DNA from: Niallia sp. Man26
GTDB lineage: Bacteria; Bacillota; Bacilli; Bacillales; Cytobacillaceae
Direction of reading: 5' to 3'
Assembly (NCBI RefSeq): GCF_022049065.2
Contig: NZ_CP095746.1
Location: 124,001-188,000 of the forward strand
Length of the DNA stretch: 64,000 nucleotides
Both the position numbers and the translations under genes were made by a program. Numbering within the stretch: position 1 is the first letter of the stretch; each line of letters starts with the position of its first letter. This document shows positions 4,329-51,882 of this stretch, piece by piece. The notes below the pieces were generated by a model. It did no database searches. It worked only from the letters and a program-made list of their open reading frames with translations, and was not told the DNA's origin.

Positions 4329-5710
4329 TTGACTTCCCCTCCATACGTTTTAAAAGATAGTATAAATGTTGTTCCGATATTAAGCTTACTTTCTACTCTT
4401 ATTGTTCCTTCATGTGCTTGAACCAATTCTTGTACAATGGATAAACCTAGTCCAGTACCCCCTAAAGATCTTGTTCTTGACTTGTCAACACGGTAAAATC
4501 GATTGAAAATATAAGGAAGATCCTCTTCGGGTATTCCGTTTCCATTATCATGGATAATTATTTCCGTTTCTTTTTTTCTAGCTGTTACTATAACTTCTAC
4601 TTTACTGTTTTTTGGAGAGTACTTCATAGCATTATCCAATAAGTTGAATATTATTTGTTCCATTCTCGCTGGGTCTCCATGTAAAGAAGAAGTTCTAGGA
4701 CAATTAATTGTTAAATCGATTTCTTTTTCTTTAAAGGCCGGTGACATTTTTATTTGTAATTTCACTAATAGCTCATATAGATTTATTTGTTGTTTCTGGA
4801 TGAGAAATGTGTTTTTATCAATCTTTGCTAACTCAAATAAGTCCTCTATTAAAGTAGAAAGTCTATTTGCTTCTTCTACAATAATTCGAAGGTACTTTTC
4901 TTTTTCTTCCTCTTCAATATTTTTTCTAAGAGAAATATCAGCATAACCCTTTATATAAGTTAACGGCGTTCTAAGTTCATGAGAAATACTAGCCAAAAAA
5001 TCATTTCTCTCTTTTTTTAAGAAATTTAAGTCTCTTGCTAATTCTTTTAAGGATACTGCTAATTCTCCTAATTCATCATTACTTGTTTTTGGGAGATCGA
5101 CTAAGAAATTCCCTTTACTTATTTGATAAGTAGCTTCCTTCATCTTTACGAGTGGTTTAGTTAAAGCTTTAGTAAGGAGTATAATCACAATAAAGGTTAA
5201 AAGAAGTGCAATTATACCAGCAAGAACAAAATGCTCATTTAACCTTCCAATTAAAGTGTGAATGGAGTCTGTTTCTTGGTACATGTAAACATAACCGATA
5301 ATTTCCTTTTTTTGCAATATCGGACTTATAGTAATAATGTAAGGTTTATTTTTCCAGTCATCCTCTACAATTTCCCCCTTTTTCTTTATTTCTGTTTTTT
5401 GGGGGTAAATTAAGTATTTCTTGAAATTTTCATTATCAAATGAGGAACCTAGAACTTCTCCTTTTTGATTAACAATTACTACATCTGTTAAAGCCTCTGA
5501 CTCCATTAAAATTACGTGACTAATGGAATCTTCTACAAAATGTTTCTCTAGAATATCTCTATGAGAGTTACCTCTTGCTTGTAAGGATGATAGCTCATCA
5601 TCAATTCTGGCATTAACTATAGAATTATGAAGATAAGAAAACATAAATGCTTCTAGTCCGAAAATAATTATGCAAAATAGAATTCCTAATTTTATTGAAA
5701 GTTTTCTCAT
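4325..5710 (-). CDS. Membrane sensor histidine kinase
   Basis: 461-residue sensor kinase. The order is a membrane helix (residues about 7-27), an extracytoplasmic sensor region of about 130 residues, a second helix (LAGIIALLLTFIVIILL), a HAMP linker, a HisKA domain with the phospho-accepting His in SISHELRTPLTYIKGY, and a HATPase domain with N box DNAMKYSP, G1 DNGNGIPEEDLPYIF and G2 GGTGLGLSIV. It starts at an ATG with AGGTGAG upstream and heads a kinase-regulator-TVP38 operon. The sensed signal is not evident; the extracytoplasmic part is rich in charged residues and shows no obvious metal-binding Cys or His cluster. Confidence 0.95.
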   Translation of the reverse strand: MRKLSIKLGILFCIIIFGLEAFMFSYLHNSIVNARIDDELSSLQARGNSHRDILEKHFVEDSISHVILMESEALTDVVIVNQKGEVLGSSFDNENFKKYLIYPQKTEIKKKGEIVEDDWKNKPYIITISPILQKKEIIGYVYMYQETDSIHTLIGRLNEHFVLAGIIALLLTFIVIILLTKALTKPLVKMKEATYQISKGNFLVDLPKTSNDELGELAVSLKELARDLNFLKKERNDFLASISHELRTPLTYIKGYADISLRKNIEEEEKEKYLRIIVEEANRLSTLIEDLFELAKIDKNTFLIQKQQINLYELLVKLQIKMSPAFKEKEIDLTINCPRTSSLHGDPARMEQIIFNLLDNAMKYSPKNSKVEVIVTARKKETEIIIHDNGNGIPEEDLPYIFNRFYRVDKSRTRSLGGTGLGLSIVQELVQAHEGTIRVESKLNIGTTFILSFKTYGGEVN

Positions 5711-39090: not shown

Positions 39091-39291
39091 TTAGCGATCA
39101 GCAGTTATAACAAGATATAAACCATTACTTAATTTTACTGTATCCCCTCTAACAGCTAGGGCTACTTCCCTTACTAACGATTGCTGTTCTTTCTCTTCTT
39201 TTGCCTGAATGAAAAGTGCATTTCCAGAGTTAATTGTTTCATTTGTATGACTACTGCTTCCAATAACGGCAAAAATTTTAATGTCTTCCAC
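39091..39291 (-). CDS. Small capping protein paired with YIEGIA protein
   Basis: 66-residue soluble protein (VEDIKIFAVIGSSSHTNETI, then ALFIQAKEEKEQQSLVREVA and VKLSNGLYLVITAD), resembling the short proteins annotated as capping subunits of YIEGIA membrane proteins in Bacillus. I chose the GTG at 39291 with AAAGGAG nine bases upstream, inside the end of the preceding gene; the two genes overlap by 14 bases. Function is unknown. Confidence 0.65.
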   Translation of the reverse strand: MEDIKIFAVIGSSSHTNETINSGNALFIQAKEEKEQQSLVREVALAVRGDTVKLSNGLYLVITADR

Positions 39292-40195
39292 AATTATTTC
39301 TCCTTTTTTGTAAATATTTATGATTCTTTTGGACTGTTTCAAGAACAGGGGTGCGAAGAATAGAAGAAATCATATTATCAATATTATGAATTATAGGTAC
39401 GATTACAAAAGCAATTCTCCCGTTAGAATAATCTTTTCTGGTAAAATGGTACCTTTTTAAGCCAAGAGTTCTGGTGATTTCAAATAAAATAGCTTGTCTT
39501 TGGCCAAAATTATCAAGGAAGATTCTATAGTGTTCTTGTTTAGGGCTTAAAATAACAGCTATCCCCTCTTGAAGTATCATCTCTTGCCCACGAATACTAC
39601 CTATACGATTAGAAATAAACATATCATCTGCATAAAGCTCGTTATTTTTTATAATTATCTTTGCTTGGTTTACTACTGCAAAATCAGATATAGTTTTCCC
39701 TTTTGAGAAACGGACTAAGATTAAAAAGATTAAAATTCCCCCTAATATTCCCAAGCTTATACGGATGAACACTGGCATTGTTTCGAGTGACTCAGCTATG
39801 ACACTTATTGTTAATGCAACAAATAAAGCTATATAATTTCTCGCCTCGTAGGTCTTCGAAATACCATCGATATAAGCACTTCCGCGTTTTGTGTATTCGG
39901 TTTCTTCTAAGGATTTTAGGCTGTCTTGTTCTAACTTTCTAACACCCTGAAATTGAGTTATTGCCAAAGCTAAAAAAGTAGCAGCTGTAACGTTATTTGT
40001 CATTATTGCAGGGATGAAAGTTGCCCCTAATGTTGATGCAACAAAACCAAGTGCAATTTGGCTAAGAACCCCATTTGGATAGGTGGGATATTGTCTATAG
40101 TCCTCTCTTAAAATAAGTACCCTAGCAAGTGTACCACCAATTATTCCTATAATAATTAAAATTAAATGTGGGGTAGATAGAATTTGTGCTCTCAT
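39278..40195 (-). CDS. YIEGIA-family membrane protein
   Basis: 305-residue membrane protein of the YIEGIA family. The family signature appears as SAYIDGISKTYEARNY, with hydrophobic segments before it (LILIIIGIIGGTLARVLI) and after (ISLGILGGILIFLILV), then a soluble C-terminal domain. The ATG at 40195 follows GAGGAGGGGG and is preferred over the earlier in-frame start at 40225. It is in an operon with its small capping partner. The family is common in spore-formers; its role is unknown to me. Confidence 0.78.
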   Translation of the reverse strand: MRAQILSTPHLILIIIGIIGGTLARVLILREDYRQYPTYPNGVLSQIALGFVASTLGATFIPAIMTNNVTAATFLALAITQFQGVRKLEQDSLKSLEETEYTKRGSAYIDGISKTYEARNYIALFVALTISVIAESLETMPVFIRISLGILGGILIFLILVRFSKGKTISDFAVVNQAKIIIKNNELYADDMFISNRIGSIRGQEMILQEGIAVILSPKQEHYRIFLDNFGQRQAILFEITRTLGLKRYHFTRKDYSNGRIAFVIVPIIHNIDNMISSILRTPVLETVQKNHKYLQKRRNNCGRH

Positions 40196-40365
40196 TTTTT
40201 CCCCCTCCTCATATCTACTTTTCAAAAATATTATCTCCGCAAATGAATAATGTATTCAGGTTTATAATAATAAAATGAACTTTGTATGGTTGGAGAAAAT
40301 TTCAAAAAATATCATTCATATTAAAGTTTAGTTTAGATAAAAATAGATTTGGGAGGTGAAAAAAT

Positions 40366-40594: not shown

Positions 40595-40781
40595 AAAATT
40601 AGGATAAGTTAAATTTATATTGGATTTTTATTGATTATTATTTTATTTTCTAACCACTTAGGATAAATGAAACGAGTATTCACTTAATAAAGCCTATTAT
40701 ATTTTAAAGAAATTGTTTCAATATCTCATATTTAAGGAAATACTACACTGAATAACGAACCAGCCAATGGAGGTAATTAGT

Positions 40782-42779
40782 TTGGAGAATAAAAAGCAGA
40801 AAGATTCAATTCATAAAGGAGAAAACCATGAAAATAATCACCATCACGGAGGAATCTTTGGAGGTAATACAGAACTTATTTTTTCATTACTATGTGGTGC
40901 CTTATTAGGAATTGGTTATCTGATAAGTATAACGAAAGATAATGTCAGTTTAATATCCATTACTTTGTATGTTATAGCGTATTTTTTTGGCGGATTTTTT
41001 ACGCTTAAAGAAGCTATTTCATCTATAAAAAAAGGAAAATTTGAAATAGACTTTCTAATGATCTTGGCAGCAATTGGGGCAGCTTTTCTAGGTGAGTGGG
41101 CTGAAGGTGCATTGTTACTGTTTTTGTTTAGTGCAGGACATGCACTAGAACATTTTGCGATGAATAGAGCGCGTAATTCAATATCTGCCCTTGCTGATAT
41201 TGCCCCTAGAACAGCTATTGTCAGAATTGGAAAAGATCAAAAAGAAGTGCCTATCGAGGATTTGACAATCGGAGATATCGTAATTGTAAAGCCTAATAGC
41301 AAAATATCAGCTGATGGAGTGGTCGTGAAAGGTAAGAGTAGTGTTAATCAAGCTCCAATAACGGGTGAGAGCATGCCTGTTGATAAAATTCCTATAAGTA
41401 ATCCAGATAATATATCGGAGAAAAATCTACCTTCTGAAAGTAGAGTGTTTTCTGGAACCATTAATGGTACTGATACTTTAGAAGTTAAGGTATTAAAAGA
41501 GGCTAACGATTCGACTTTAAGTCGTTTAATAAAATTAGTGAAAGAAACGGAATCACAGAAATCGCCTACTCAATTATTTACTGATCGTTTTGAGAAGTAT
41601 TTTGTCCCAGCTATACTTATATTGGTGTTTTTACTTCTTTTTGCTTTTCTTGTTTTAGATGAAACATTTAGTGAAAGCTTTTATCGGGCAATGGCAGTTT
41701 TGGTTGCAGCAAGCCCTTGCGCATTAGCTATTTCTACGCCAAGTGCTGTATTAAGTGGAGTAGCAAGAGCTGCTCGTGGAGGTGTATTAATAAAAGGTGG
41801 GTTACCTCTTGAAAATTTAGGAGAATTAAAAGCAATAGCCTTTGATAAAACAGGAACATTGACGGAGGGTAAACCAAAACTAAATAAAATCGTAACTGTT
41901 AATAATGTTAGTGAGGAAGAGTTATTATTAACTACTATTGCGGTAGAGAAATTAAGTGATCATCCACTAGCAGCCGCCATAGTAAAAGGTGGAGTAGAGA
42001 AACTCGGAAATAGACCAATAGAAGAAGCAGATAGTTTAAAAGCCGTTACGGGAAGAGGTGTTACGGCACAGTTAAATAATGAAACCATTTATATTGGAAA
42101 CAGAAGTTTATTTGAGGAGCACCTCTCCATTAGTTTACCCGATGATTTATCAAACAGTTTAAATGAATTGGAGTCAAATGGAAATACTGCGATGATAGTA
42201 AAAAAAGAAGAAATGTTTCTGGGTATTATTGGACTGATGGATACTCCAAAAGAAGAGGCTGAATCTGTTATTAAAAGTTTGCGGAAGTACGGAATAAAAC
42301 GAATGATAATGATTACAGGTGATAATCAACGAGTAGCGGATAGTATTGCGAAATTAATCGGAATTAAAGAGGCTTGGGGAGGACTACTACCTGAAGATAA
42401 GGTTAAAGCAATAAATGATCTTAAAGAAACTGAAAAGAAGGTTGCTATGGTAGGGGATGGTGTTAATGATGCTCCTGCTATGGCAAAAAGTTCTGTTGGT
42501 ATTGCAATGGGTGCTGCAGGGTCAGATGTTGCGTTAGAAACAGCAGATATCGCCTTGATGGCAGATAATTTAAATGATTTACCTTTCGCAATAAATCTAA
42601 GTAGGAAAAGTAAATCCATAATAAAGCAAAATTTATGGATAAGTTTAGGCGTTACTGCTTTCCTGATACCTGCAACTTTATTTGGTTTTACTGGAATTGG
42701 GTTAGCTGTTTTAATACATGAGGGATCCACAATACTTGTTGTTTTTAATGCATTAAGACTTTTAGCTTTAAAAAAATAA
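40782..42779 (+). CDS. P1B-4-type metal ATPase (Fe/Co/Zn efflux, PfeT/ZosA-like)
   Basis: 665-residue heavy-metal ATPase. The transport site motif in helix 6 is SPCALA (not CPC), and the last helix region has LIHEGSTILVV, the HEG-S/T signature of the P1B-4 group, which exports Fe2+ or Co2+ (Bacillus PfeT, formerly ZosA). P-domain DKTGTLTEGKP, HP motif SDHPLAAAI and GDGVNDAPAMA are present. The N-terminus is short and His-rich (ENHENNHHHGG) with no HMA domain. The ATG at 40767 overlaps the ribosome site, so I prefer TTG at 40782 after TGGAGG. No clear Fur/PerR or CzrA site was seen upstream. Confidence 0.9.
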   Translation: MENKKQKDSIHKGENHENNHHHGGIFGGNTELIFSLLCGALLGIGYLISITKDNVSLISITLYVIAYFFGGFFTLKEAISSIKKGKFEIDFLMILAAIGAAFLGEWAEGALLLFLFSAGHALEHFAMNRARNSISALADIAPRTAIVRIGKDQKEVPIEDLTIGDIVIVKPNSKISADGVVVKGKSSVNQAPITGESMPVDKIPISNPDNISEKNLPSESRVFSGTINGTDTLEVKVLKEANDSTLSRLIKLVKETESQKSPTQLFTDRFEKYFVPAILILVFLLLFAFLVLDETFSESFYRAMAVLVAASPCALAISTPSAVLSGVARAARGGVLIKGGLPLENLGELKAIAFDKTGTLTEGKPKLNKIVTVNNVSEEELLLTTIAVEKLSDHPLAAAIVKGGVEKLGNRPIEEADSLKAVTGRGVTAQLNNETIYIGNRSLFEEHLSISLPDDLSNSLNELESNGNTAMIVKKEEMFLGIIGLMDTPKEEAESVIKSLRKYGIKRMIMITGDNQRVADSIAKLIGIKEAWGGLLPEDKVKAINDLKETEKKVAMVGDGVNDAPAMAKSSVGIAMGAAGSDVALETADIALMADNLNDLPFAINLSRKSKSIIKQNLWISLGVTAFLIPATLFGFTGIGLAVLIHEGSTILVVFNALRLLALKK

Positions 42780-42954
42780 TTTTCTGTATACCACAAATAA
42801 TATTTAAATACGGGAAGGTAAAGTAGTTTAGATTAATGTGTAATATATCCCATTAGAATTATAGTAAACAGTTGCTTTTTTTAGTAAATAAAAAAGGGGA
42901 ATTATATATTTATGCTATAATAGAGAAATTAGAACTAAATAAGGGGATTACATA

Positions 42955-43293
42955 ATGGGATCTTTACATGAAAAAAATGAGGGGAAGACAAAACAATATA
43001 TAAATCAACTGGATGAGGAAACATTATTTATAGTGTCTCAAACGTTTAAGGCTCTTTCTGAACCAACACGGATAAAAATATTGCATTTGTTAGCAGAAAG
43101 ACCGCACTCTGTAAATGAAATAGCAGAAAGGTTGGAGATGTTACAATCAACTGTTTCTCATCAATTAAGTTTTCTGAAAAATTTGAGGCTTGTTAAATAT
43201 AAAAGAGAAGGAACTACTATGATTTATTCGTGTGATGATGCGCATGTAATGGGTGTATTAGAACAAATGATTGATCATGCACAACACCATTAA
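42955..43293 (+). CDS. czrA: Zinc-responsive ArsR-family repressor CzrA
   Basis: 112-residue ArsR/SmtB-family protein with [20 protein letters not shown], the recognition helix around [14 protein letters not shown], and a C-terminal helix [21 protein letters not shown]. The residues D95, H97, H108 and H111 reproduce the spacing of the CzrA alpha-5 zinc site (D-x-H, then H eleven residues on, then H three further). Zn2+ or Co2+ binding would release it from DNA. AAGGGGATT precedes the ATG. It sits between the P1B-4 ATPase and cadA. Matching operators are at 13557, 14728 and 43417, but I saw none before czrA itself. Confidence 0.9.
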
Positions 43294-43323
43294 TAAGAAG
43301 ATTATTTAGAAAGAATATGGGGT

Positions 43324-43356
43324 AAAAGGATGGTGGAGTGTATACCATCCTTTTTT
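43324..43356 (+). terminator. Terminator after czrA
   Basis: AAAAGGATGGT and ACCATCCTTTTTT form an 11-bp stem with U-run. Confidence 0.88.
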
Positions 43357-43377
43357 ATTCTTAAAAGTTGATAACCA

Positions 43378-43438
43378 TTGACACTTGTTTTGGATAGTAT
43401 ATAATACATATATGGTTATATGAATATTTGGTCATATA
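43378..43438 (+). promoter_or_regulatory. cadA promoter with CzrA-type operator
   Basis: TTGACA (43378-43383), 16 bases, TATAAT (43400-43405), then TATATGA-N8-TCATATA (43417-43438). The near-consensus promoter is overlaid downstream by the same operator found at czcO and czcD. Confidence 0.87.
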
Positions 43439-43477
43439 TAAGTTTTTGAACGCTTGTAGAAAGGGGAAAGAGTATTT

Positions 43478-45706
43478 ATGGAAGAAGTCAGACAACAGTT
43501 AAAAAAGGAATTTTTATTAGAGGGTCTTGACTGTGCTAACTGTGCAATGAAAATTGAAAGAGGAGTTTCGTCTATAAATGGTGTAAAGGATTGTAATGTG
43601 AATTTTGCTACACAGACAATATCCTTGCGATACGAAAGTAACGAAGAAGAAAGTATATTATTAAATACAAAGAAAACAATTAATCGTTTAGAGCCACATG
43701 TTAAGTTAGTTGAAAAACAAAGTGGGAGAAGGAATACTAAACTCATAAGCCATGGTCATGCTCATAGCCATAATCATGACCATTCCCACAATGATGCAAA
43801 TGACCATAATCATGGCCATTCCCATTCCCATGAGCATGGAAGTAATGATATCAAAAAAATGATTAGTCGTTTATTCTTAGGTGGACTAATTTTTGGTTTA
43901 GGGATTTTTGCGCCAATAACAGGAATGACCGAATTGATGGTGTTCTTACTTGCTTATGTTATAGTTGGTGGCGATATTGTATTAAGAGCAATAAAAAATA
44001 TAACAAGAGGGCAAGTCTTCGATGAGCATTTCCTTATGGCTATTGCTACAATCGGTGCTTTTGCTATTCAGGAGTATCCAGAAGGTGTAGCCGTAATGCT
44101 ATTTTATCAGGTCGGTGAGCTATTCCAATCAATTGCAGTTAATCGTTCTAGAAAATCAATCAGCAGTTTAATGGATATTCGACCAGACTTTGCCAATCTT
44201 CAAGTTGGATTAGATGTCAAAAAAGTATCACCCGAAGATGTTGAAATTGGCGATATTATTGTAATTAAACCTGGAGAAAAGGTTCCATTAGATGGTGTTA
44301 TATTAGAAGGAACTTCGAGCGTTGACACATCTGCATTAACAGGGGAATCAGTGCCACGTGATGTAACTGTGGGAAGTGATATATTAAGTGGTTTTATTAA
44401 CAAAAATGGTCTTCTGACGGTAGAAGTAAAAAAAGAATTTGGAGAATCAACTGTTTCTAAAATTTTAGAATTAGTACAAAATGCTAGCAATAGAAAAGCT
44501 AAAACGGAGAACTTTATCACTAAATTCGCTCGTTACTATACACCAGTTGTTGTAATTATTGCATTACTGTTAGCTATTGTTCCACCCTTACTTTTTAGTG
44601 GAGCTACCTTCTCAGACTGGGTATATAGAGCCCTTATCTTTTTAGTTATTTCCTGTCCTTGTGCTTTAGTTGTTTCTATTCCTTTAGGCTTTTTCGGTGG
44701 AATTGGAGCAGCCTCTAAAAAAGGAATATTAGTAAAAGGTAGTAACTATTTGGAAGCACTTAATGATGTTAAGTATGTCGTATTTGATAAAACAGGAACC
44801 CTTACAAAAGGTGTATTTGAAGTAGACTCGGTTTATCCTGTTAATGGATACTCAGAGGAAGAAATAATTAAGTTTGCTGCTTACGCTGAAACACACTCCA
44901 ATCATCCAATTGCTGACTCAATTAGAAAGGCCTTTGGAGATAAGATAAAGGAAGAATTAATTCAAGACTATAATGAAATAGCTGGTCATGGTATTTCTGT
45001 AGTAGTGGACGGAAAAGAAATACTAGCTGGAAACGATAAACTTATGCAAAAAGAAAAGGTTGATTTTTACAGGAATAACGAAATTGGTACGATTGTTTAT
45101 GTTGCATACGATAAACAATTCGTAGGTTCCATTGCAATTTCAGACCAAATAAAAGCGGACTCCTATAGCGCGATACAAACACTAAAAAGAATAGGCATCA
45201 AGAAGACCGTTATGTTAACAGGGGATTCTAAAGTGGTTGGGAAAAGGGTAGGAGAACTGCTTGAAATAGATGAGGTTCATGCAGAGTTACTTCCTCAAAA
45301 TAAAGTAGAAGAAATAGAGAAATTAGATGCTTCTAAGAATGCTAAAGACAAAATTTTGTTTGTTGGAGACGGTATTAATGATACTCCAGTATTAGCTAGA
45401 GCAGATGTAGGAATGGCTATGGGGGGGTTAGGTTCAGATGCAGCAATTGAAGCGGCTGATATTGTTATTATGACAGATGAACCTTCTAAAATAGCCACGG
45501 CAATCTCACTTGCTAAGCGGACTAGACGTATTGTATGGCAAAACATTATTTTCGCATTAGGAGTAAAGGCAATCTTTCTATTGTTAGGGGCTTTTGGTAT
45601 TGCAACAATGTGGGAAGCCGTATTTTCTGATGTAGGAGTTACACTTATCGCAGTATTGAATGCTATGAGAATACTAAAAGTAACAAATGACGATCCTTTT
45701 TCTTAA
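43478..45706 (+). CDS. cadA: P1B-2-type Zn/Cd/Pb-exporting ATPase
   Basis: 742-residue heavy-metal ATPase. One N-terminal HMA domain (LLEGLDCANCAMKIERGV) is followed by a His-rich linker around residues 88-125 (HGHAHSHNHDHSHND and more), then eight membrane helices with the CPC site (ISCPCALVVSIPLG), DKTGTLTKG, HSNHPIADSI and GDGINDTPVLA. The C-terminal SDVGVTLIAVLNAMRIL has the Asp of P1B-2 enzymes. The His-rich insert suggests zinc binding. AAAGGGGAAAG precedes the ATG and a CzrA-type operator covers the promoter. It forms a unit with the upstream czrA although a terminator separates them. Confidence 0.96.
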   Translation: MEEVRQQLKKEFLLEGLDCANCAMKIERGVSSINGVKDCNVNFATQTISLRYESNEEESILLNTKKTINRLEPHVKLVEKQSGRRNTKLISHGHAHSHNHDHSHNDANDHNHGHSHSHEHGSNDIKKMISRLFLGGLIFGLGIFAPITGMTELMVFLLAYVIVGGDIVLRAIKNITRGQVFDEHFLMAIATIGAFAIQEYPEGVAVMLFYQVGELFQSIAVNRSRKSISSLMDIRPDFANLQVGLDVKKVSPEDVEIGDIIVIKPGEKVPLDGVILEGTSSVDTSALTGESVPRDVTVGSDILSGFINKNGLLTVEVKKEFGESTVSKILELVQNASNRKAKTENFITKFARYYTPVVVIIALLLAIVPPLLFSGATFSDWVYRALIFLVISCPCALVVSIPLGFFGGIGAASKKGILVKGSNYLEALNDVKYVVFDKTGTLTKGVFEVDSVYPVNGYSEEEIIKFAAYAETHSNHPIADSIRKAFGDKIKEELIQDYNEIAGHGISVVVDGKEILAGNDKLMQKEKVDFYRNNEIGTIVYVAYDKQFVGSIAISDQIKADSYSAIQTLKRIGIKKTVMLTGDSKVVGKRVGELLEIDEVHAELLPQNKVEEIEKLDASKNAKDKILFVGDGINDTPVLARADVGMAMGGLGSDAAIEAADIVIMTDEPSKIATAISLAKRTRRIVWQNIIFALGVKAIFLLLGAFGIATMWEAVFSDVGVTLIAVLNAMRILKVTNDDPFS

Positions 45707-45721
45707 TCCTAATAATTAGCT

Positions 45722-45770
45722 AAAACAGCATCATTATTTAGTAACTAAGCTGATAATGATGCTGTTTTTT
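45722..45770 (+). terminator. Terminator after cadA
   Basis: AAAACAGCATCATTAT and ATAATGATGCTGTTTT form a perfect 16-bp stem followed by TT. Confidence 0.9.
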
Positions 45771-45838
45771 GCAATTTACTTTTATGGATATATACTGATG
45801 TTGAATTTCACCTGTAAAATTAATTAGGAGAAGTCGAT

Positions 45839-46720
45839 ATGCAAAATATTGTTATTGTACTTGTGGGCTTAGTATTAATTACCTTAATAATCATTTTTAT
45901 TTCAAAAAGTATTAGAACTATGATTCCTTCTTTAATTGCCTTTTATTTCTTAATCTTAATAAGCTTGTTTACTTATAATAGCAAGCAAGTGGAGTCTTTT
46001 TTACAAAAGGAAGTTGACATTACAAGCAGTGAAAAGAAGGAGGGAATAGAGAAAAAACCAGCACAGGAAATAAACAAAGAATGGAATGAAAAGGATGAAA
46101 ATAGAGGAAAAGTCAAAAAAAACATAATTCTTGATGCACCTATAATTAAACAATTTCCTGAACTACCAAGAGGATGTGAAGTAACTAGTTTAGCAATGTT
46201 TTTCCAATATTACGATATTAAGGTTAATAAAATGGACTTAGCTAAAAAAGTAAAAAAGGATAAAACTCCATTAACTAAGAGAAATGGAAAGATATTCTGG
46301 GGAAATCCAAATGATGGATTTATAGGTGATATGTATTCTTTTAATAATCCTGGGTATGGTGTATATCATAAACCTATTCTGGATTTAGCTGAAGAATATC
46401 TTCCAGGGAAAATAGTAAATTTGACCGGAAGTAATTTAGAGGACTTAAAAAGATATCTCTCTAATAATAGACCTATCTGGATTATAACAAATGCAAGCTA
46501 TGATTATTTGCCGTCATCTTCATTTGAAAAATGGAATACTCCATCAGGCGAAATTAATATCACTTATAGATTACACTCTGTTTTAATAACAGGTTATGAT
46601 GAAGCTAATATCTATTTCAATGATCCAATTGATGGTAAGAAAAATAAACAGGTACCTATACAACCATTTATAAAGGCTTGGGAACAAATGGGGAGTCAGG
46701 CAATTTCATTAAACTTATAA
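45839..46720 (+). CDS. Membrane-anchored C39-family peptidase-like protein, second copy
   Basis: 293-residue paralogue of the protein at 8545-9447 with the same plan: two hydrophobic segments at the N-terminus, a charged stalk and a Peptidase_C39_2 domain. ELPRGCEVTSLAMF carries the probable catalytic Cys, RLHSVLITGYDE the His and YFNDPIDG the third residue. The stalks differ while the catalytic halves are very alike. TTAGGAGAAG precedes the ATG. It lies between cadA and copC but is transcribed from its own short leader. Substrate unknown. Confidence 0.82.
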   Translation: MQNIVIVLVGLVLITLIIIFISKSIRTMIPSLIAFYFLILISLFTYNSKQVESFLQKEVDITSSEKKEGIEKKPAQEINKEWNEKDENRGKVKKNIILDAPIIKQFPELPRGCEVTSLAMFFQYYDIKVNKMDLAKKVKKDKTPLTKRNGKIFWGNPNDGFIGDMYSFNNPGYGVYHKPILDLAEEYLPGKIVNLTGSNLEDLKRYLSNNRPIWIITNASYDYLPSSSFEKWNTPSGEINITYRLHSVLITGYDEANIYFNDPIDGKKNKQVPIQPFIKAWEQMGSQAISLNL

Positions 46721-46856
46721 TTGAAACATATACCTCAACAAGTATTAGTATAAATTAATACTTATTCACTAAATTGTCACAATTATAATAATTAGAATCA
46801 TGTTATCATTATAACGATGTTGTTAATATAATGACTAGAGAAAAAGAGGGGAAAAA

Positions 46857-47486
46857 ATGAAAAAGGGTTTGTATATATTTTTTATTAGTTTCTTTTTTGT
46901 ATGGACAAATAATGCATTTGCTCATACTGGGTTGGAAAGTTCATCACCTGGGAATGAGGAGATAGTAAAGGAAGAATTGCAAAAAATCACACTAACATTT
47001 GAAACTAAAATTGAACAGGGAAGTACATTTACACTAATAAATTCGGAAAACAAAGTGATACAAGTGCAAAATATTGAAAAAACGGATAACCAACTTATCG
47101 GGGAGTTTACTTCTCCATTAGAAAATGATAATTATGATATCCAATGGCAAATTATTGGAGTAGATGGTCATATTATTGAGGGAGAGTTTACTTTTACAGT
47201 TGATGCTCCTGTGGGAGAAGAAGAGGATCAGTTGAAAGCCGAAACAGATGAGAAAGCAACAACACAACAAGATGCTAAAGAAGAAGAAACAACTAAAGAT
47301 GACACGAAAAAGGATACAGAGGAAATAGATCATTCAACTATGTCTCCAGAGGAACATGCTGCATATGAGAAAGCAAATTCCGATCCTTCTACTGTATTAA
47401 TTCCTGCAATTTTAATATTAGTAGGGATAATAGTAATTATTATAGTTGCAGCATATATAGTAACAAGGAAAAATAAATCGGTATAA
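46857..47486 (+). CDS. copC: CopC-domain copper-binding protein
   Basis: 209-residue exported protein. A signal peptide ends at NAFA, and the mature protein begins HTGLESSSPGNEE, giving the N-terminal His copper ligand of CopC; GVDGHIIEGEFTFTV supplies the second-site His. A Glu/Lys-rich linker (residues about 120-160) contains DHSTMSPEEHAAYEKA, a His/Met motif that may also bind copper. A C-terminal membrane helix (LIPAILILVGIIVIIIV) anchors it. GAGGGGAAA precedes the ATG. It overlaps copD, as in YcnJ-type systems where both parts form one protein. Confidence 0.88.
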   Translation: MKKGLYIFFISFFFVWTNNAFAHTGLESSSPGNEEIVKEELQKITLTFETKIEQGSTFTLINSENKVIQVQNIEKTDNQLIGEFTSPLENDNYDIQWQIIGVDGHIIEGEFTFTVDAPVGEEEDQLKAETDEKATTQQDAKEEETTKDDTKKDTEEIDHSTMSPEEHAAYEKANSDPSTVLIPAILILVGIIVIIIVAAYIVTRKNKSV

Positions 47487-48574
47487 TGTTTATCATAATC
47501 ACAGTTACTCAAGCTTTATTATATATTTGCTACTCAATTATTATGGGAAGCTTTCTTTTGAATCTTGTCCCTAATAACTATAAGCCATTAATATATTTGC
47601 CTAGAAAAATATTACTAATCTCTCTTGGGGGAATAGTAATATTTTCATTTATTCCGGTATTACCACTTATCTTGCATCTTAATTCACTACTTGGATTTAC
47701 TGACGCGGTAAATTCAGTTCTGCTTACATTTCAAATCGGAAAGTCTTGGTTATTCACTTTTGTTGTTTCTCTAACATTTGTTCCGTTTCTAGTTTTTTTT
47801 AACAACCGGAAAACAATACAAAACATTGTTGGTATTTTATTTACCTTAATCTTAATTAGCGCAGTAGGTTGGTCAAGTCATGCGAGTTCATTGAATCCTG
47901 TTAAGGGATTTTTGAGTGATAGTACACATCTGACTGCTGTAAGTGTTTGGGTTGGTATCCTATTTATAATTAGTTGGTTTTCCAAAGATGAGTCAAATTG
48001 GTTGCCGTTTTTAAAATGGTTTACACCAGTAGCTATTTCTTGCTTAGTTATTACAGCAATTAGCGGTATTGTTCTAATGACATTTGATATCGACTTTAAT
48101 AATTACTATAATTCCTGGATGATTCCATATGGTCAATCATTACTAATAAAGCATATTTTAATTATCCCTTTACTGGTGTATGCATTTATTAATGGTTTTT
48201 TTATTAAAAGAAGACTTAATAAAGAAGAAAACTTTAATCCTAAACCATGGGCTAGGATTGAAAGTATAATAATTTTATTTGTTTTTACAGCTACATCAGC
48301 ATTAAGTCAACAATCTCCACCGAAAGAAACAGCCATAACAGAAGAGTCTGTATCACCAATCTTTAAAGTCTTCCATCAAGGGGAAGTTGAGTTAGGAGTA
48401 AACTTACAAGTAGGTATTAGCTTAATAAGTATTCTATTTTTATTGTTAACCCTTGTATTTTTAATACTAACAGTTGTATTTTACTTTAAGAAAAAAAGTT
48501 CGTATTTGTCACTCGTTTTGGGAATTCTCTCTTTAGTAAGTATTTATTTATCGTTAATGTATATTGTTTCATAA
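47486..48574 (+). CDS. copD: CopD-domain copper transport membrane protein
   Basis: 362-residue membrane protein with about eight to nine helices matching the CopD domain, thought to bring copper into the cytoplasm with CopC. Family marks are SHASSLNPVKGFLSDSTHL followed by TAVSVWVGILFIISWF, and WMIPYGQSLLIKHILIIPLL. Its ATG overlaps the copC stop (TAATG). A copper uptake pair next to exporters suggests fine control of copper, perhaps to supply the haem-copper oxidase; that link is inference. Confidence 0.88.
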   Translation: MFIIITVTQALLYICYSIIMGSFLLNLVPNNYKPLIYLPRKILLISLGGIVIFSFIPVLPLILHLNSLLGFTDAVNSVLLTFQIGKSWLFTFVVSLTFVPFLVFFNNRKTIQNIVGILFTLILISAVGWSSHASSLNPVKGFLSDSTHLTAVSVWVGILFIISWFSKDESNWLPFLKWFTPVAISCLVITAISGIVLMTFDIDFNNYYNSWMIPYGQSLLIKHILIIPLLVYAFINGFFIKRRLNKEENFNPKPWARIESIIILFVFTATSALSQQSPPKETAITEESVSPIFKVFHQGEVELGVNLQVGISLISILFLLLTLVFLILTVVFYFKKKSSYLSLVLGILSLVSIYLSLMYIVS

Positions 48575-48585
48575 AATAAAGTGTG

Positions 48586-48617
48586 GTCTGGAGATAGAGA
48601 CATCTCCAGACTTTTTT
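48586..48617 (+). terminator. Terminator after copD
   Basis: GTCTGGAGAT and ATCTCCAGAC form a perfect 10-bp stem followed by TTTTTT. Confidence 0.92.
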
Positions 48618-48671
48618 AATTGGCTAGTTTTATTTAAGAATTTATTTCTCACATTAAAAAACAGTAATTTA

Positions 48672-48701
48672 TTGACACACATATTAGTAAAAGTTAATAT
48701 G
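48672..48701 (+). promoter_or_regulatory. Promoter and operator of the CmtR-like regulator and Cys-Cys ATPase
   Basis: TTGACA (48672-48677), 17 bases, TAATAT (48695-48700). Overlapping the spacer and -10 is a perfect inverted repeat CATATTA-N8-TAATATG (48680-48701). It has the same 7-8-7 layout as the CzrA operators but a different sequence, so it should be read by a different ArsR-type protein, most simply the one encoded just downstream. Confidence 0.82.
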
Positions 48702-48745
48702 ATGGCATTAGACATATTAGAAACAACTAATACGAGGGGGTAATT

Positions 48746-49066
48746 ATGCAAAATAGCACTTTGGATATGAAGGTCAAACTAATTCATGGTTTTTCGAATA
48801 AAACTCGAATTCAGATTCTAGAATGTCTGAAAAATGAGGAGAAAACTGTATCACAAATTGTCGAGCAGATAAAAGGAAATCAATCGAATATTTCTCAACA
48901 TTTAGCCTGTTTAAAGGGTTGTGGCATTATCGTTGGAAGAAATGAAGGCAAATATTGCTTTTATAGTCTGAGAAACCAATATATTCGTGATTTATTAGAT
49001 ATGTTTGATGTAGTTCTAAATGATGTTCAGAATGACGTTATTTGTTGTGAAAATCATATGGAGTGA
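48746..49066 (+). CDS. CmtR-like ArsR-family Cd/Pb sensor
   Basis: 106-residue ArsR-family repressor: HGFSNKTRIQILECLKNEEK, recognition region NQSNISQHLACLKGCGIIV. Cys55 and Cys59 in ACLKGCG, on the recognition helix, and a C-terminal Cys100-Cys101 (VICCENH) match the ligand pattern of CmtR (C57, C61, C102), which senses Cd2+ and Pb2+. GAGGGGG precedes the ATG. The gene ends 11 bases before the Cys-rich ATPase, so the two form an operon behind the CATATTA operator. Confidence 0.87.
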   Translation: MQNSTLDMKVKLIHGFSNKTRIQILECLKNEEKTVSQIVEQIKGNQSNISQHLACLKGCGIIVGRNEGKYCFYSLRNQYIRDLLDMFDVVLNDVQNDVICCENHME

Positions 49067-49077
49067 GGTGAATAATA

Positions 49078-51843
49078 GTGCCTGAAAAATGCTGTAGTTC
49101 AAACAATGAAAATAAAGATAATAAACTAGTTACCACAACAAATTGTTGTTCTAACGAAACGAAAATTACAGAAGAAAGTTCTGAAGTGATTTTAGTTGAA
49201 AGCAACTGTTGCAGTAATTCCAAAGAGACAGACGAAAGTACATGTTGCAGTTCAAGTTCCTCGAAAGAAGAAATGAAAGAAATAAGCTCAAGTTGCTGTT
49301 CGACCAATAAAAAGCAACCATCGAATACATCTGAGCTATTTAATGTGATACCGGTGGCAAGTAGCTGCTGTAACAGTACTAAAGAGCCGGAGAAGGACTC
49401 ATGTTGCAGTAAGGAGTCAGCTGAAAAAGTAAGTGATTGCTGTGCTTCTCAAGTTAGTAAGTCTGAAGAAAAGGCTAGCTCTTGTTGTAGTACTACAATT
49501 GAAGTCGAAGAAAATATAATGGAAACTAATGCTGGAGAAAGGCAAGATTTCCTTATTACTGGGATGGATTGCCCTGCTTGTGCCAAGACCATTGAAAAAG
49601 GATTAGGATCATTACCAGGTATCGAGACAGTAAAAGTAAACTATAGTACGGCAAAAATGCAAGTACACGCAGCTAATTCTTCTTCATTCATTTCTATTGA
49701 AAAGGAAATAAAGAAACTTGGATATTCGGCTGAAGTGCTGCAACAAAACAAAAATTTACGAACTTATGATATCGTGGGAATGGACTGTGGCAGCTGTGCA
49801 AAAAGTATTGAAAACCACTTTCAAAAAAACCCTTCCGTTAAAGAAGTAAGTGTTAATTTCTCTACAGGAAAAATGAAAATAGAACATACCAATAGTGTAG
49901 ACGAAATAATCTCAGAAGTAGGTAAAATTGGGTACAGTGCTAGTTTGAAATTAAATAAGAAATCATCGGTGGAACAACCGAAAAGTAAAAAAGAAAACTG
50001 GATTATTATTTCTTCAGGTCTTCTTATAGTCATAGGTTTTTTACTATCTTATATATCTGTTCCGATGATTGTATCCACTATTTTATATGCTGGTGCTATC
50101 GTAATTAGTGGGTATAAACCAGTGAAAAGTGCCTTTTATGCCATTAAGAGCCGATCCCTTGATATGAACGTGCTAATGTCTGCGGCCGCAATTGGAGCTG
50201 CTTTAATTGGAGAATGGTTGGAAGGTGCCACAGTAGTATGGTTGTTCGCCATCGGAAATTACCTGCAAACAAAGTCCATTGAAAGAACTAGAAATTCTAT
50301 TCGAAGTTTAATGGATTTATCTCCATCGGAGGCTTGGGTTAAGATTGGAAATGACTTAATCAAAAAGCCAGTTGAGGAGATTTCAGTTGGTACTACTATC
50401 GTGGTAAAACCTGGTGACCGAATTGCTTTGGATGGCGATGTTGTTCAAGGTGAATCCAGTGTAAACCAAGCACCTATAACAGGAGAATCTATACCAGTAG
50501 ATAAAGCTATAGGTGATTCTGTATACGCTGGTACAATAAATGAACATGGTTTATTAGAAATAAAAGTAACGAAGTTGGTAGAAGATACTACTATCTCTAA
50601 AATCATTCATTTAGTAGAAGAAGCACAAGAACAAAAAGCACCAACAGAAGCATTTGTGGACAAATTTGCAAGTATCTACACACCTATCGTATTTATAGCT
50701 GCTTTGGCAGTTATTGTTATTCCTCCATTGATAGGATTGGGAACATGGGGAGAATGGTTCTATAAAGGGCTTGAGTTATTAGTGGTTGCTTGTCCATGTG
50801 CGCTAGTTATCTCCACTCCTGTTGCGATTGTGTCTGCTATCGGCAATGCTGCTAGAAATGGTGTCCTAATAAAAGGTGGAACTTTCTTAGAAGCTGCTGG
50901 GGCCATCAATGCAATTGCTTTTGATAAAACGGGTACGCTGACAGAAGGGAAACCAAAAGTATCAGACATTAAAACCTTTAATGGTTCTGAAGAAGAATTG
51001 CTATCCATAGCTCTTACTTTGGAAGAATATTCTACTCATCCTATTGCTAAAGCAATTGTAGATCATGTAAGAGAACTAGGGAAGCCAGCTAAAGATGGAG
51101 CAGAATACAAAAACATTGTAGGAAAAGGTGTGCAAGCTACCATCACTGGAGAAATATACTATGCAGGAAACCTGAAACTGTTTAAAGAAATGAGTATCCC
51201 ATTAGGTACGGTTGAAGCGTATGTAAATGAAGTGCAAAATAATGGGAAGACAGTAGTTATCATAGGGACAAAAACCGATATTCTGGGAGTTATTTCGGTT
51301 GCTGATACTATACGTGAAAACTCTGCCGTTGCGCTAAAATCACTATTATCTAATGGTATCAAGCAAACGGTTATGTTAACAGGAGATAATGAAGGAACAG
51401 CTAAATTGATTGCTTCTAAGGCGAATGTAAATCGATATTTTGCTAATTTACTTCCAGAAGATAAAGTCGATGCGGTAAAGAAATTGCAAGAAGAAGGATA
51501 CAAAGTAGCAATGGTTGGTGACGGAATAAATGATGCGCCAGCATTGGCAACGGCTGATTTAGGAATCGCAATGGGTGGGGCTGGTACAGATACTGCCATG
51601 GAAACAGCAGATATTGTGTTAATGGCAGATAATTTAGAGAAACTGCCACATACCATTAAATTAAGTAAAAAAGCTTTAAGCATTATAAAGCAAAACATTT
51701 GGTTCTCTATCCTCATAAAAGTTATTGCTTTAGTATTGATTTTCCCAGGGTGGTTAACACTTTGGATGGCAGTATTAAGTGATACAGGAGCAGCTTTAAT
51801 CGTTATTTTAAATGCATTACGGTTATTGCGAATAAAAGGTTAA
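49078..51843 (+). CDS. P1B-2-type metal ATPase with nine Cys-Cys pairs at the N-terminus
   Basis: 921-residue heavy-metal ATPase starting at GTG. Residues 1-145 are a low-complexity Ser/Glu/Lys region holding nine CC dipeptides at 5, 23, 44, 56, 73, 97, 109, 121 and 136, each usually followed by Ser/Asn/Ala. Two HMA domains follow (TGMDCPACAKTIEKG and VGMDCGSCAKSIENH), then the membrane core with VACPCALVISTPVA, DKTGTLTEGKP, YSTHPIAKAI, GDGINDAPALA and the C-terminal SDTGAALIVILNALRLL of Cd/Zn/Pb pumps. The cognate regulator looks like a Cd/Pb sensor. The CC tail could bind soft ions such as Cd2+, Pb2+ or As(III); this is inference. Not related in layout to cadA at 43478, which has a His-rich linker instead. 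Confidence 0.93.
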   Translation: MPEKCCSSNNENKDNKLVTTTNCCSNETKITEESSEVILVESNCCSNSKETDESTCCSSSSSKEEMKEISSSCCSTNKKQPSNTSELFNVIPVASSCCNSTKEPEKDSCCSKESAEKVSDCCASQVSKSEEKASSCCSTTIEVEENIMETNAGERQDFLITGMDCPACAKTIEKGLGSLPGIETVKVNYSTAKMQVHAANSSSFISIEKEIKKLGYSAEVLQQNKNLRTYDIVGMDCGSCAKSIENHFQKNPSVKEVSVNFSTGKMKIEHTNSVDEIISEVGKIGYSASLKLNKKSSVEQPKSKKENWIIISSGLLIVIGFLLSYISVPMIVSTILYAGAIVISGYKPVKSAFYAIKSRSLDMNVLMSAAAIGAALIGEWLEGATVVWLFAIGNYLQTKSIERTRNSIRSLMDLSPSEAWVKIGNDLIKKPVEEISVGTTIVVKPGDRIALDGDVVQGESSVNQAPITGESIPVDKAIGDSVYAGTINEHGLLEIKVTKLVEDTTISKIIHLVEEAQEQKAPTEAFVDKFASIYTPIVFIAALAVIVIPPLIGLGTWGEWFYKGLELLVVACPCALVISTPVAIVSAIGNAARNGVLIKGGTFLEAAGAINAIAFDKTGTLTEGKPKVSDIKTFNGSEEELLSIALTLEEYSTHPIAKAIVDHVRELGKPAKDGAEYKNIVGKGVQATITGEIYYAGNLKLFKEMSIPLGTVEAYVNEVQNNGKTVVIIGTKTDILGVISVADTIRENSAVALKSLLSNGIKQTVMLTGDNEGTAKLIASKANVNRYFANLLPEDKVDAVKKLQEEGYKVAMVGDGINDAPALATADLGIAMGGAGTDTAMETADIVLMADNLEKLPHTIKLSKKALSIIKQNIWFSILIKVIALVLIFPGWLTLWMAVLSDTGAALIVILNALRLLRIKG

Positions 51844-51844
51844 A

Positions 51845-51882
51845 AAAACCGAGATGTCTAACTAATGACATCTCGGTTTTTA
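51845..51882 (+). terminator. Terminator after Cys-Cys ATPase
   Basis: AAAAACCGAGATGTC and GACATCTCGGTTTTT form a perfect 15-bp stem. Confidence 0.92.

What the first reader, a model, noticed from the sequence alone, without database searches (positions are those of the whole stretch)
49078..49515. Metal ATPase with an N-terminal tail of nine Cys-Cys pairs
Residues 1-145 of the ATPase carry nine CC dipeptides at irregular 12-24 residue steps in a Ser/Glu/Lys-rich, probably disordered chain, ahead of two normal HMA domains. I know His-rich tails and HMA repeats in P1B pumps but not a beaded Cys-Cys tail of this length. The operon partner is a CmtR-like sensor that itself ends in Cys-Cys. The tail could be a high-capacity trap for Cd, Pb or As(III) that hands ions to the pump, or a sensor of thiol state.
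Basis: partly seen in the sequence, partly recalled or inferred. Interest (0 to 1): 0.72.

Follow-up and report, generated by a model that had tools for sequence, protein, structure and literature searches.

The report
Beaded Cys-Cys tail on bacterial metal pump
A family of bacterial zinc/cadmium-type export pumps carries a floppy front tail studded with pairs of cysteines, probably a built-in metal catcher and regulator like the one known on plant zinc pumps, which bacterial pumps were said to lack.

Summary
Nine CC dipeptides hold all 18 cysteines of residues 1-153 of a 921-aa P1B-2 pump, ahead of two HMA domains. The tail is predicted disordered.

It is not a one-off. 137 distinct relatives (Bacillaceae-type genera, Paenibacillus) carry 1-9 beads, none zero. 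A core-only query in 397 genomes splits cleanly: 75 of 75 places at >=62% identity have beads; 0 of 15 sampled at <=57%. A tree puts 91 beaded pumps, four from Staphylococcus, Erwinia and Leclercia plasmids, on one branch. Bead cysteines change about six-fold less than spacers, while bead number shifts by duplication and deletion.

Best reading: an in-cis, metal-binding buffer/regulator on a Zn/Cd/Pb exporter, an N-terminal analogue of plant HMA2/HMA4 di-Cys tails; metal binding is inferred. A three-bead member is Cd-induced, yet its operon did not raise Cd resistance in E. coli or B. subtilis (PMC6975044): this argues against a simple high-capacity Cd pump and permits a self-restraining tail. 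A 2023 review says prokaryotic P1B pumps lack such terminal domains. New variant of a known kind.

The parts
48672..48700 (+). SigmaA-type promoter TTGACA-17-TAATAT of the regulator-pump operon
   Evidence: 10 of 12 consensus matches; that scan found 12 promoter-like sites against 11.7 expected, so the case rests on conservation: 16 of the 17 upstream regions printed have TTGACA at this place (L033 has TCGACA)
48680..48701 (.). Operator-like palindrome O1, CATATTAG-N6-(C/T)TAATATG, inside the promoter
   Evidence: the exact consensus CATATTAG-N6-CTAATATG occurs in 54 of 218 loci fetched, some of them the same genome twice; in this genome only O1 and O2 match the query pattern without mismatch
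48713..48734 (.). Second operator-like palindrome O2, 33 bp downstream of O1
48746..49066 (+). ArsR/SmtB metalloregulator, CmtR-like (CxxxC in the recognition-helix region plus C-terminal CC)
   Evidence: Pfam HTH_5; NCBIfam CmtR 51 bits, below its cut-off of 150; aligned with CmtR 2jsc, three Cys of 2jsc face Cys here (that these are its ligands is recalled)
49078..51843 (+). P1B-2 heavy-metal ATPase, 921 aa
   Evidence: best solved relative ZntA 4umv, E 2.3e-140
49078..49536 (+). Beaded di-Cys tail, residues 1-153: 9 CC, 18 Cys, 0 His, predicted disordered
49537..49737 (+). HMA domain 1 (residues 154-220)
   Evidence: Pfam HMA, two stretches in the protein; limits from the model's secondary structure
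49756..49947 (+). HMA domain 2 (residues 227-290)
   Evidence: Pfam HMA, best stretch 229-286; model
50791..50799 (+). CPC metal-transport motif (residues 572-574)
   Evidence: invariant in 54 aligned rows, with K881 and D902-x-G904; aligned with the same residues of ZntA
51844..51881 (+). Intrinsic terminator closing the operon
   Evidence: 15-pair stem then T run
46857..48574 (+). Neighbouring CopC and CopD genes, a recurrent neighbour of this operon
   Evidence: Pfam CopC, CopD; CopC in 14 and CopD in 17 of 86 loci, L009 (same sequence as here) included

Best explanation
The tail is an intrinsically disordered, cytosolic, metal-binding extension of a Zn/Cd/Pb-type (P1B-2) efflux ATPase. Each Cys-Cys bead offers two thiolates; two neighbouring beads about 16 residues apart can close round one soft metal ion (Cys4), so nine beads would hold about four ions. 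The tail works in cis as a local buffer and sensor: metal-free it restrains or fails to feed the pump; when soft metal loads it, the tail compacts, passes metal on and/or releases the pump. Bead number acts as a dial on capacity or threshold and is re-set by duplication and deletion of bead units. Shown: sequence, disorder prediction, single beaded branch, purifying selection on bead Cys, bead-number turnover, pump type by residues, metal-sensor-type partners, conserved operator-like sites. Published for one relative: Cd induction. Inferred: metal binding, stoichiometry, and the buffer/gate role.
For: Pump type: CPC, Lys and DxG of ZntA conserved. Beads in 137 of 137 distinct clade members and in 75 of 75 places at >=62% core identity, found with a query lacking tail and HMA, against 0 of 15 sampled at <=57%. 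91 beaded pumps on one branch, local support 100. Selection: over 42 non-overlapping pairs bead Cys changed at 20 of 342 sites, spacer 1047 of 2914, core 3179 of 31982; in the 15 closest pairs (core identity >=95%, where alignment is hardly in doubt) 3 of 126, 163 of 1119 and 417 of 11503. 1051 of 1157 tail Cys lie in runs of two or more against 211 expected by shuffling; spacing median 16, 296 of 387 within 11-20. Dial: 20 of 42 pairs differ in bead number; two records titled Fredinandcohnia onubensis have 5 and 2 beads through an in-frame deletion flanked by a bead-codon direct repeat; a 54-bp tandem array of 3.2 copies, one bead per unit, in Bacillus sp. OV166. Partners are CmtR-type in 72 and CadC-type in 52 of 137 by motif, both Cd/Pb sensor types (recalled). 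Cd induces member orf4776 23.6-fold and its regulator 26.1-fold (PMC6975044); orf4776 is identical to my L122. Analogy: AtHMA2c with six di-Cys binds three Zn, and AtHMA4c di-Cys give the high-affinity sites (PMC6255694 passages).
Against: No binding data for any bacterial tail. Overexpressing orf4776-4777 did not raise Cd resistance in E. coli or B. subtilis (PMC6975044), so the pump may not act mainly on Cd. In AtHMA4 the di-Cys are only partly needed for Cd binding and transport (PMC7264368, abstract). Some members have a single bead (12 of 137), too few for a Cys4 site within one tail. Autoinhibition by the tail is extrapolated from plant HMA4 in yeast and from LpCopA. The codon test leaves out beads lost by deletion, and the aligner's high score for Cys-Cys favours matching beads in the more distant pairs.
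Confidence: 0.6

Rival explanations
1. Pure capture-and-delivery: the tail is a passive high-capacity trap that raises local metal near the pump and hands ions to the HMA domains, with no regulatory role.
For: Same anatomy and selection data; HMA4c is described as both strong chelator and zinc donor in vitro (PMC6255694).
Against: A beaded pump overexpressed with its regulator gave no Cd resistance (PMC6975044). Review passages report that full-length HMA4 fails to complement Zn-sensitive yeast while tail deletions progressively help (PMC10654040).
Confidence: 0.2
2. The pump's main substrate is not Cd but Pb, Zn or another soft metal; the tail fits that ion and Cd only trips the sensor.
For: Cd induces orf4776-4777 without the operon giving Cd resistance, while the classic CadA operon 4802-4803 on the same plasmid let B. 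subtilis grow at seven times the control Cd (PMC6975044; 4802 has 0 CC). Compatible with the best explanation.
Against: Transport residues match ZntA, a Zn/Cd/Pb pump; partners are Cd/Pb-sensor types (recalled). A single study in two hosts; I saw no report there, in the three of six parts read, of how much pump protein was made.
Confidence: 0.35
3. Thiol-state sensor: beads form disulfides under oxidative or thiol stress and switch the pump.
For: DsbA and BdbC genes lie near the operon in 21 and 19 of 86 loci; oxidoreductase genes near the beaded operon on p25, and disulfide-related genes in a Cd cluster of a second species, are Cd-induced (PMC6975044).
Against: Dsb proteins act outside the cytosol while HMA-bearing N termini face the cytosol (recalled). 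In 65 of 86 loci no DsbA was found within the fetched flanks. Partners are of metal-sensor types.
Confidence: 0.07
4. Metal-controlled stability signal: the tail marks the pump for proteolysis unless metal is bound, as in yeast Pca1.
For: Pca1's cysteine-rich N terminus works so (PMC10654040 passages); a disordered N-terminal tail is a plausible protease entry.
Against: No bacterial example appeared in the listings of my ten paper searches; I tested no degron motif.
Confidence: 0.08
5. Low-complexity sequence without function.
For: Spacers drift fast and are rich in Ser/Glu/Lys.
Against: Bead Cys change about six-fold less than spacers, also in the 15 closest pairs; no bead-less member in 137; kept in plasmid-borne copies of Enterobacterales and Staphylococcus.
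Confidence: 0.02

Closest known systems
Plant HMA2/HMA4 C-terminal di-Cys tails (P1B-2 ATPases)
   Same: Same pump class; cytosolic extension with many Cys-Cys pairs (6 in AtHMA2, 13 in AtHMA4, 11 in A. halleri HMA4); fast-diverging tail on a conserved core (PMC6255694 passages).
   Different: Plant tail is C-terminal, 470 aa in AtHMA4, with a His stretch; the bacterial tail is N-terminal, ahead of two HMA domains, His-poor, about 16-residue spacing. I made no sequence comparison with the plant tails; common origin is unlikely given the opposite ends, but untested.
Yeast Pca1 cysteine-rich N terminus
   Same: N-terminal cysteine-rich extension of a P1B pump used as a Cd sensor (PMC10654040 passages).
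   Different: Works there through ubiquitination and turnover; whether Pca1 shows a bead layout was not compared.
Classic CadA (S. aureus-type) and ZntA
   Same: Same P1B-2 core residues as ZntA; CadC-type regulators shared with 52 of 137 beaded pumps.
   Different: 0 of 15 sampled non-clade pumps carry a CC anywhere in the frame, nor does the R. marisflavi CadA orf4802.
Flexible N-terminal tail of LpCopA (P1B-1)
   Same: Disordered tail before the metal-binding domain, proposed autoinhibitory with the domain as sensor (PMC11970713 abstract and passages).
   Different: 34 residues, Cu pump; no Cys beads are described in the passages seen.
Metallothioneins
   Same: Dense Cys in a flexible chain (recalled).
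   Different: Part of a pump; no free-standing relative of the tail found (66 candidates, none at E<=10; a weak search for such sequence).

Membership tests
P1B-2 (Zn/Cd/Pb) ATPase | E1-E2 ATPase and HAD domains with DKTGT | tested here: met
   Pfam PF00122 and PF00702; D616 K617 T618 G619 T620 invariant
P1B-2 (Zn/Cd/Pb) ATPase | CPC plus Lys and DxG metal-site residues as in ZntA | tested here: met
   Aligned with 4umv; C572-P573-C574, K881, D902, G904 invariant in 54 rows. Their roles are recalled
P1B-2 (Zn/Cd/Pb) ATPase | Transports Zn, Cd or Pb | not testable with these tools
   NCBIfam cadmium subfamily model TIGR01512 passes its cut-off, but PMC6975044 found no Cd resistance from a relative's operon
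Classic CadA | N terminus with HMA domain(s) and no CC | tested here: not met
   Separate branch, local support 100; 0 of 15 sampled non-clade loci with CC
Plant HMA4-type di-Cys tail | Several spaced Cys-Cys pairs in a cytosolic extension | tested here: met
   Nine pairs, predicted disordered; cytosolic side follows from the HMA domains (recalled)
Plant HMA4-type di-Cys tail | C-terminal position | tested here: not met
   The tail is N-terminal; the protein ends four residues after its last helix
Plant HMA4-type di-Cys tail | His stretch | tested here: not met
   0 His in the window tail; median 1 His over 137 tails, 14 with five or more
Plant HMA4-type di-Cys tail | Nanomolar Zn binding by di-Cys | not testable with these tools
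   Needs purified protein
CmtR (regulator partner) | Three ligand Cys (two in the recognition-helix region, one C-terminal) | tested here: met
   Alignment with 2jsc; CxxxC and a C-terminal Cys in 68 of 68 CmtR-type partners. That these are ligands is recalled
CmtR (regulator partner) | NCBIfam CmtR equivalog cut-off | tested here: not met
   51.2 bits against 150
Metallothionein | Small free-standing Cys-rich protein | tested here: not met
   N-terminal part of a 921-aa pump; no free-standing relative found

The most novel reading that the evidence does not exclude
Bacteria evolved, apparently independently of plants and at the opposite end of the protein, a di-Cys terminal domain that makes a P1B pump a transceptor: metal-free tail holds the pump off, metal-loaded tail releases it, and the number of beads, changed by simple duplication or deletion between close relatives and between copies in one genome, sets the threshold or capacity. 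This would explain why a Cd-induced beaded pump gives no Cd resistance when overexpressed at full length, as full-length AtHMA4 fails in yeast.
Probability: 0.25. Interest if true: 0.78.

Novelty: new variant of a known kind. Interest (0 to 1): 0.58.

Why it matters
[quoted passage not shown] This clade is a counter-example, with natural variants of 1 to 9 beads on a similar core, differing even between close relatives and between three copies in one genome. That turns 'what do Cys-rich tails of metal pumps do?' into a tractable bacterial experiment, and gives a graded natural library of candidate metal-binding tails. It may also explain a published puzzle: a beaded operon that Cd induces but that does not protect.

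Tried and rejected
Chance or low complexity: rejected by shuffles and codon comparison. Unique to this genome: rejected. Standard CadA domain: rejected; no Pfam or NCBIfam hit in the tail, no CC in 15 sampled non-clade pumps, none in the seven other P-type ATPases of this genome that were fetched. Free-standing CC-bead protein: none found, but that search is word-based and weak on such sequence. A broad CC-bead habit in the phylum: outside the clade 3 of 29 phylum-level loci have a single CC in an otherwise different N terminus. Obligate pairing with the CC-ended CmtR sensor: rejected (72 CmtR-type, 52 CadC-type, 13 with neither motif within 700 nt). Recent tandem duplication inside the window's own tail: no array found, one 18-nt repeat pair. 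A regulon beyond the operon: apart from O1 and O2 no site with fewer than two mismatches; 42 two-mismatch hits against 34 for the reversed-pattern control.

Dropped or corrected rows: L062 dropped as not intact (1 of 80); L188 lacks a full frame and was left out of the tree; the Exiguobacterium plasmid copy L212 has no intact frame and was left out. Of the 2094 plasmid records with a match only 40 were listed and seven looked at. Start codons were assigned by script; upstream artefacts in L011, L013, L035 and L091 were trimmed; the counts predate this. The start of L088 (same protein as L136) is doubtful. The 15 outgroup places were chosen by me (first rows, long frames, a few others), not at random; because saw only part of some N termini, recounted their whole frames (still 0 CC). 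One search scored three candidates per genome, so 75 places in 72 of 397 genomes are a lower bound. In one search two of 46 pairs repeated other pairs and several proteins occurred under two ids; one search repeats the test with 137 distinct proteins and 42 pairs. The tree is FastTree with a warning that the long branches L208-L211 meet; their exact place is unsure.
Full report
What is there. The window lies on a 232-kb contig of a 5.7-Mb genome. The genome is almost surely Niallia (inference): the pump is 100% identical to one of Niallia sp. NCCP-28 and 97% to one of N. taxi. A two-gene operon runs from a TTGACA-17-TAATAT promoter (48672-48700) through an ArsR/SmtB regulator (48746-49066) and a 921-aa P-type ATPase (49078-51843) to a 15-pair terminator. 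The ATPase has nine CC dipeptides in residues 1-153, then two HMA domains, then a P1B core. Its CPC, Lys and DxG residues align with ZntA and are invariant in 54 aligned rows. AlphaFold2 leaves residues 1-151 unstructured (overall mean pLDDT 68).

How widespread. A scan of genome contigs gave 188 relatives, of which the best 80 were kept; 79 have an intact frame and all 79 have at least one CC (start artefacts later trimmed). To avoid choosing by tail I searched with residues 325-921 only in 397 genomes of the order. There is a gap: 75 places (72 genomes) at 62-100% identity, everything else listed at 57% or less. All 75 carry beads; 0 of 15 sampled below the gap do. In 398 genomes drawn over the phylum the window's own pump was the only hit above 57% identity. 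Plasmid records add Peribacillus, two Staphylococcus species and, in Enterobacterales, Erwinia and Leclercia. A FastTree of 134 cores puts the 91 beaded clade members on one branch with local support 100; of the other 43, 40 have no CC and 3 have one. Merged, 137 distinct clade proteins (the plasmid copies L208-L213 not counted) have 1-9 beads, median 4, none with zero; only L009 and L010, both Niallia, have nine.

Is the tail under selection? Over 42 non-overlapping pairs (core identity 84% or more), an amino acid changed at 20 of 342 bead-Cys sites, 1047 of 2914 spacer sites and 3179 of 31982 core sites; synonymous-only changes were 55, 352 and 7653. The aligner favours matching Cys with Cys, so I repeated the count on the 15 closest pairs (95% or more): 3 of 126, 163 of 1119 and 417 of 11503; Fisher P 2e-5 for bead against spacer. 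So the cysteines are held and the spacers drift. Beads lost by deletion are outside this count. Bead spacing has median 16 with 296 of 387 between 11 and 20. Bead number changes readily: 20 of 42 pairs differ. Two records titled Fredinandcohnia onubensis (96% core identity; held as separate species in a one-per-species collection) have 5 and 2 beads, differing by an in-frame deletion between repeats of bead codons. Bacillus sp. OV166 has a 54-bp tandem array of 3.2 copies, one bead per unit. Oceanobacillus bengalensis has three copies in one strain with 7, 6 and 3 beads.

Control and neighbours. Three Cys of CmtR (2jsc) face Cys in the window regulator, which does not reach NCBIfam's CmtR cut-off. 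Within 700 nt upstream of the pump, 72 of 137 clade members have a CmtR-type and 52 a CadC-type regulator by motif; 13 have neither. Two copies of a palindrome (48680-48701, 48713-48734) sit in and after the promoter; the exact consensus occurs in 54 of 218 loci fetched, duplicates of genomes included, and no third good copy was seen in this genome. CopC, CopD, DsbA and BdbC genes lie nearby in 14, 17, 21 and 19 of 86 loci; the flanks are 3 kb or less (5 kb in L213, the source of the DsbA and BdbC queries), so these are minima.

Experimental hint. Protein orf4776 of Rossellomorea marisflavi plasmid p25 is identical to my clade member L122, with three beads, CmtR-type partner and the same kind of palindromes upstream. 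In PMC6975044 (three of six parts of the text read, plus passages) Cd raised its transcript 23.6-fold and its regulator's 26.1-fold. Yet orf4776-4777 with its own promoter did not raise Cd resistance in E. coli or B. subtilis, while the classic CadA pair 4802-4803 let B. subtilis grow at seven times the Cd tolerated by controls. The passages found with cysteine, CXXC, N-terminal, amino acids, motif and domain in that paper do not mention the tail. Whether orf4087 of the second strain, also Cd-induced and also without marked Cd resistance on overexpression, is beaded I could not check.

How it most likely works. Shown here: anatomy, single beaded branch, selection on bead cysteines, bead turnover, pump type by residues. 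Published for one member: Cd induction. Inferred: metal binding by bead pairs, about four ions for nine beads (by analogy with AtHMA2c, six di-Cys to three Zn, PMC6255694 passages), and an in-cis buffer/gate. A gate is attractive because full-length AtHMA4 fails in yeast while tail deletions help (PMC10654040 passages), LpCopA's tail is proposed to autoinhibit (PMC11970713, abstract and passages), and the beaded pump is induced but not protective. Against it, the same failure fits a non-Cd substrate or poor expression, and di-Cys matter less for Cd than for Zn in AtHMA4 (PMC7264368 abstract).

Novelty. Ten paper searches in the open-licence library: in their listings and in the passages I opened I saw no description of a bacterial di-Cys tail. 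Subscription papers are mostly not held, and I opened five papers. [quoted passage not shown] The kind of thing is known from plants; the bacterial, N-terminal version with a variable bead number looks new.

Noticed in passing
window 40767-51843 and contig position just upstream of the window (C4:121315-123669): Three P1B-type ATPases in one 11-kb stretch (40767-42779, 43478-45706, 49078-51843), a CopA-like pump with two HMA domains about 0.3 kb before the window begins, plus CopC/CopD and a second ArsR gene (42955-43293): a metal-resistance island.
   Followed up: partly
window 43478-45706: P1B pump with a His-rich linker (HGHAHSHNHDHSH...) between its HMA domain and the membrane part; a paralogue with a similar linker lies elsewhere in the genome (L007).
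   Followed up: no
window 39278-40225 (-): YIEGIA-family protein near the metal genes; in PMC6975044 a YIEGIA gene (orf4104) in a Cd cluster of another species rises 14-fold with Cd by qRT-PCR.
   Followed up: no
L011, L013, L015, L017, L025, L027, L030, L032, L039, L041, L043, L072 and others: A DsbA-BdbC (thiol-disulfide oxidoreductase) gene pair near the beaded-pump operon; disulfide-related genes are Cd-induced in PMC6975044.
   Followed up: partly
L065, L067, L071, L079, L082 (Paenibacillus and Cohnella), L208, L209 (Erwinia and Leclercia plasmids): A second bead flavour, C-x-x-x-CC (such as CEDACC, CQDECC), in Paenibacillaceae often beside a repeated FKKSLNLI-like module, hinting at a link between the enterobacterial and Paenibacillus-type tails.
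   Followed up: no
L157, L162, L163: Clade members whose tails switch to acidic DDDCC and CTCC/CNCC patterns with many unpaired Cys, a divergent tail chemistry.
   Followed up: no
L076 (Paenibacillus chondroitinus): Clade member whose tail has 17 His and only 2 CC: apparent exchange of Cys beads for a His-rich stretch.
   Followed up: no
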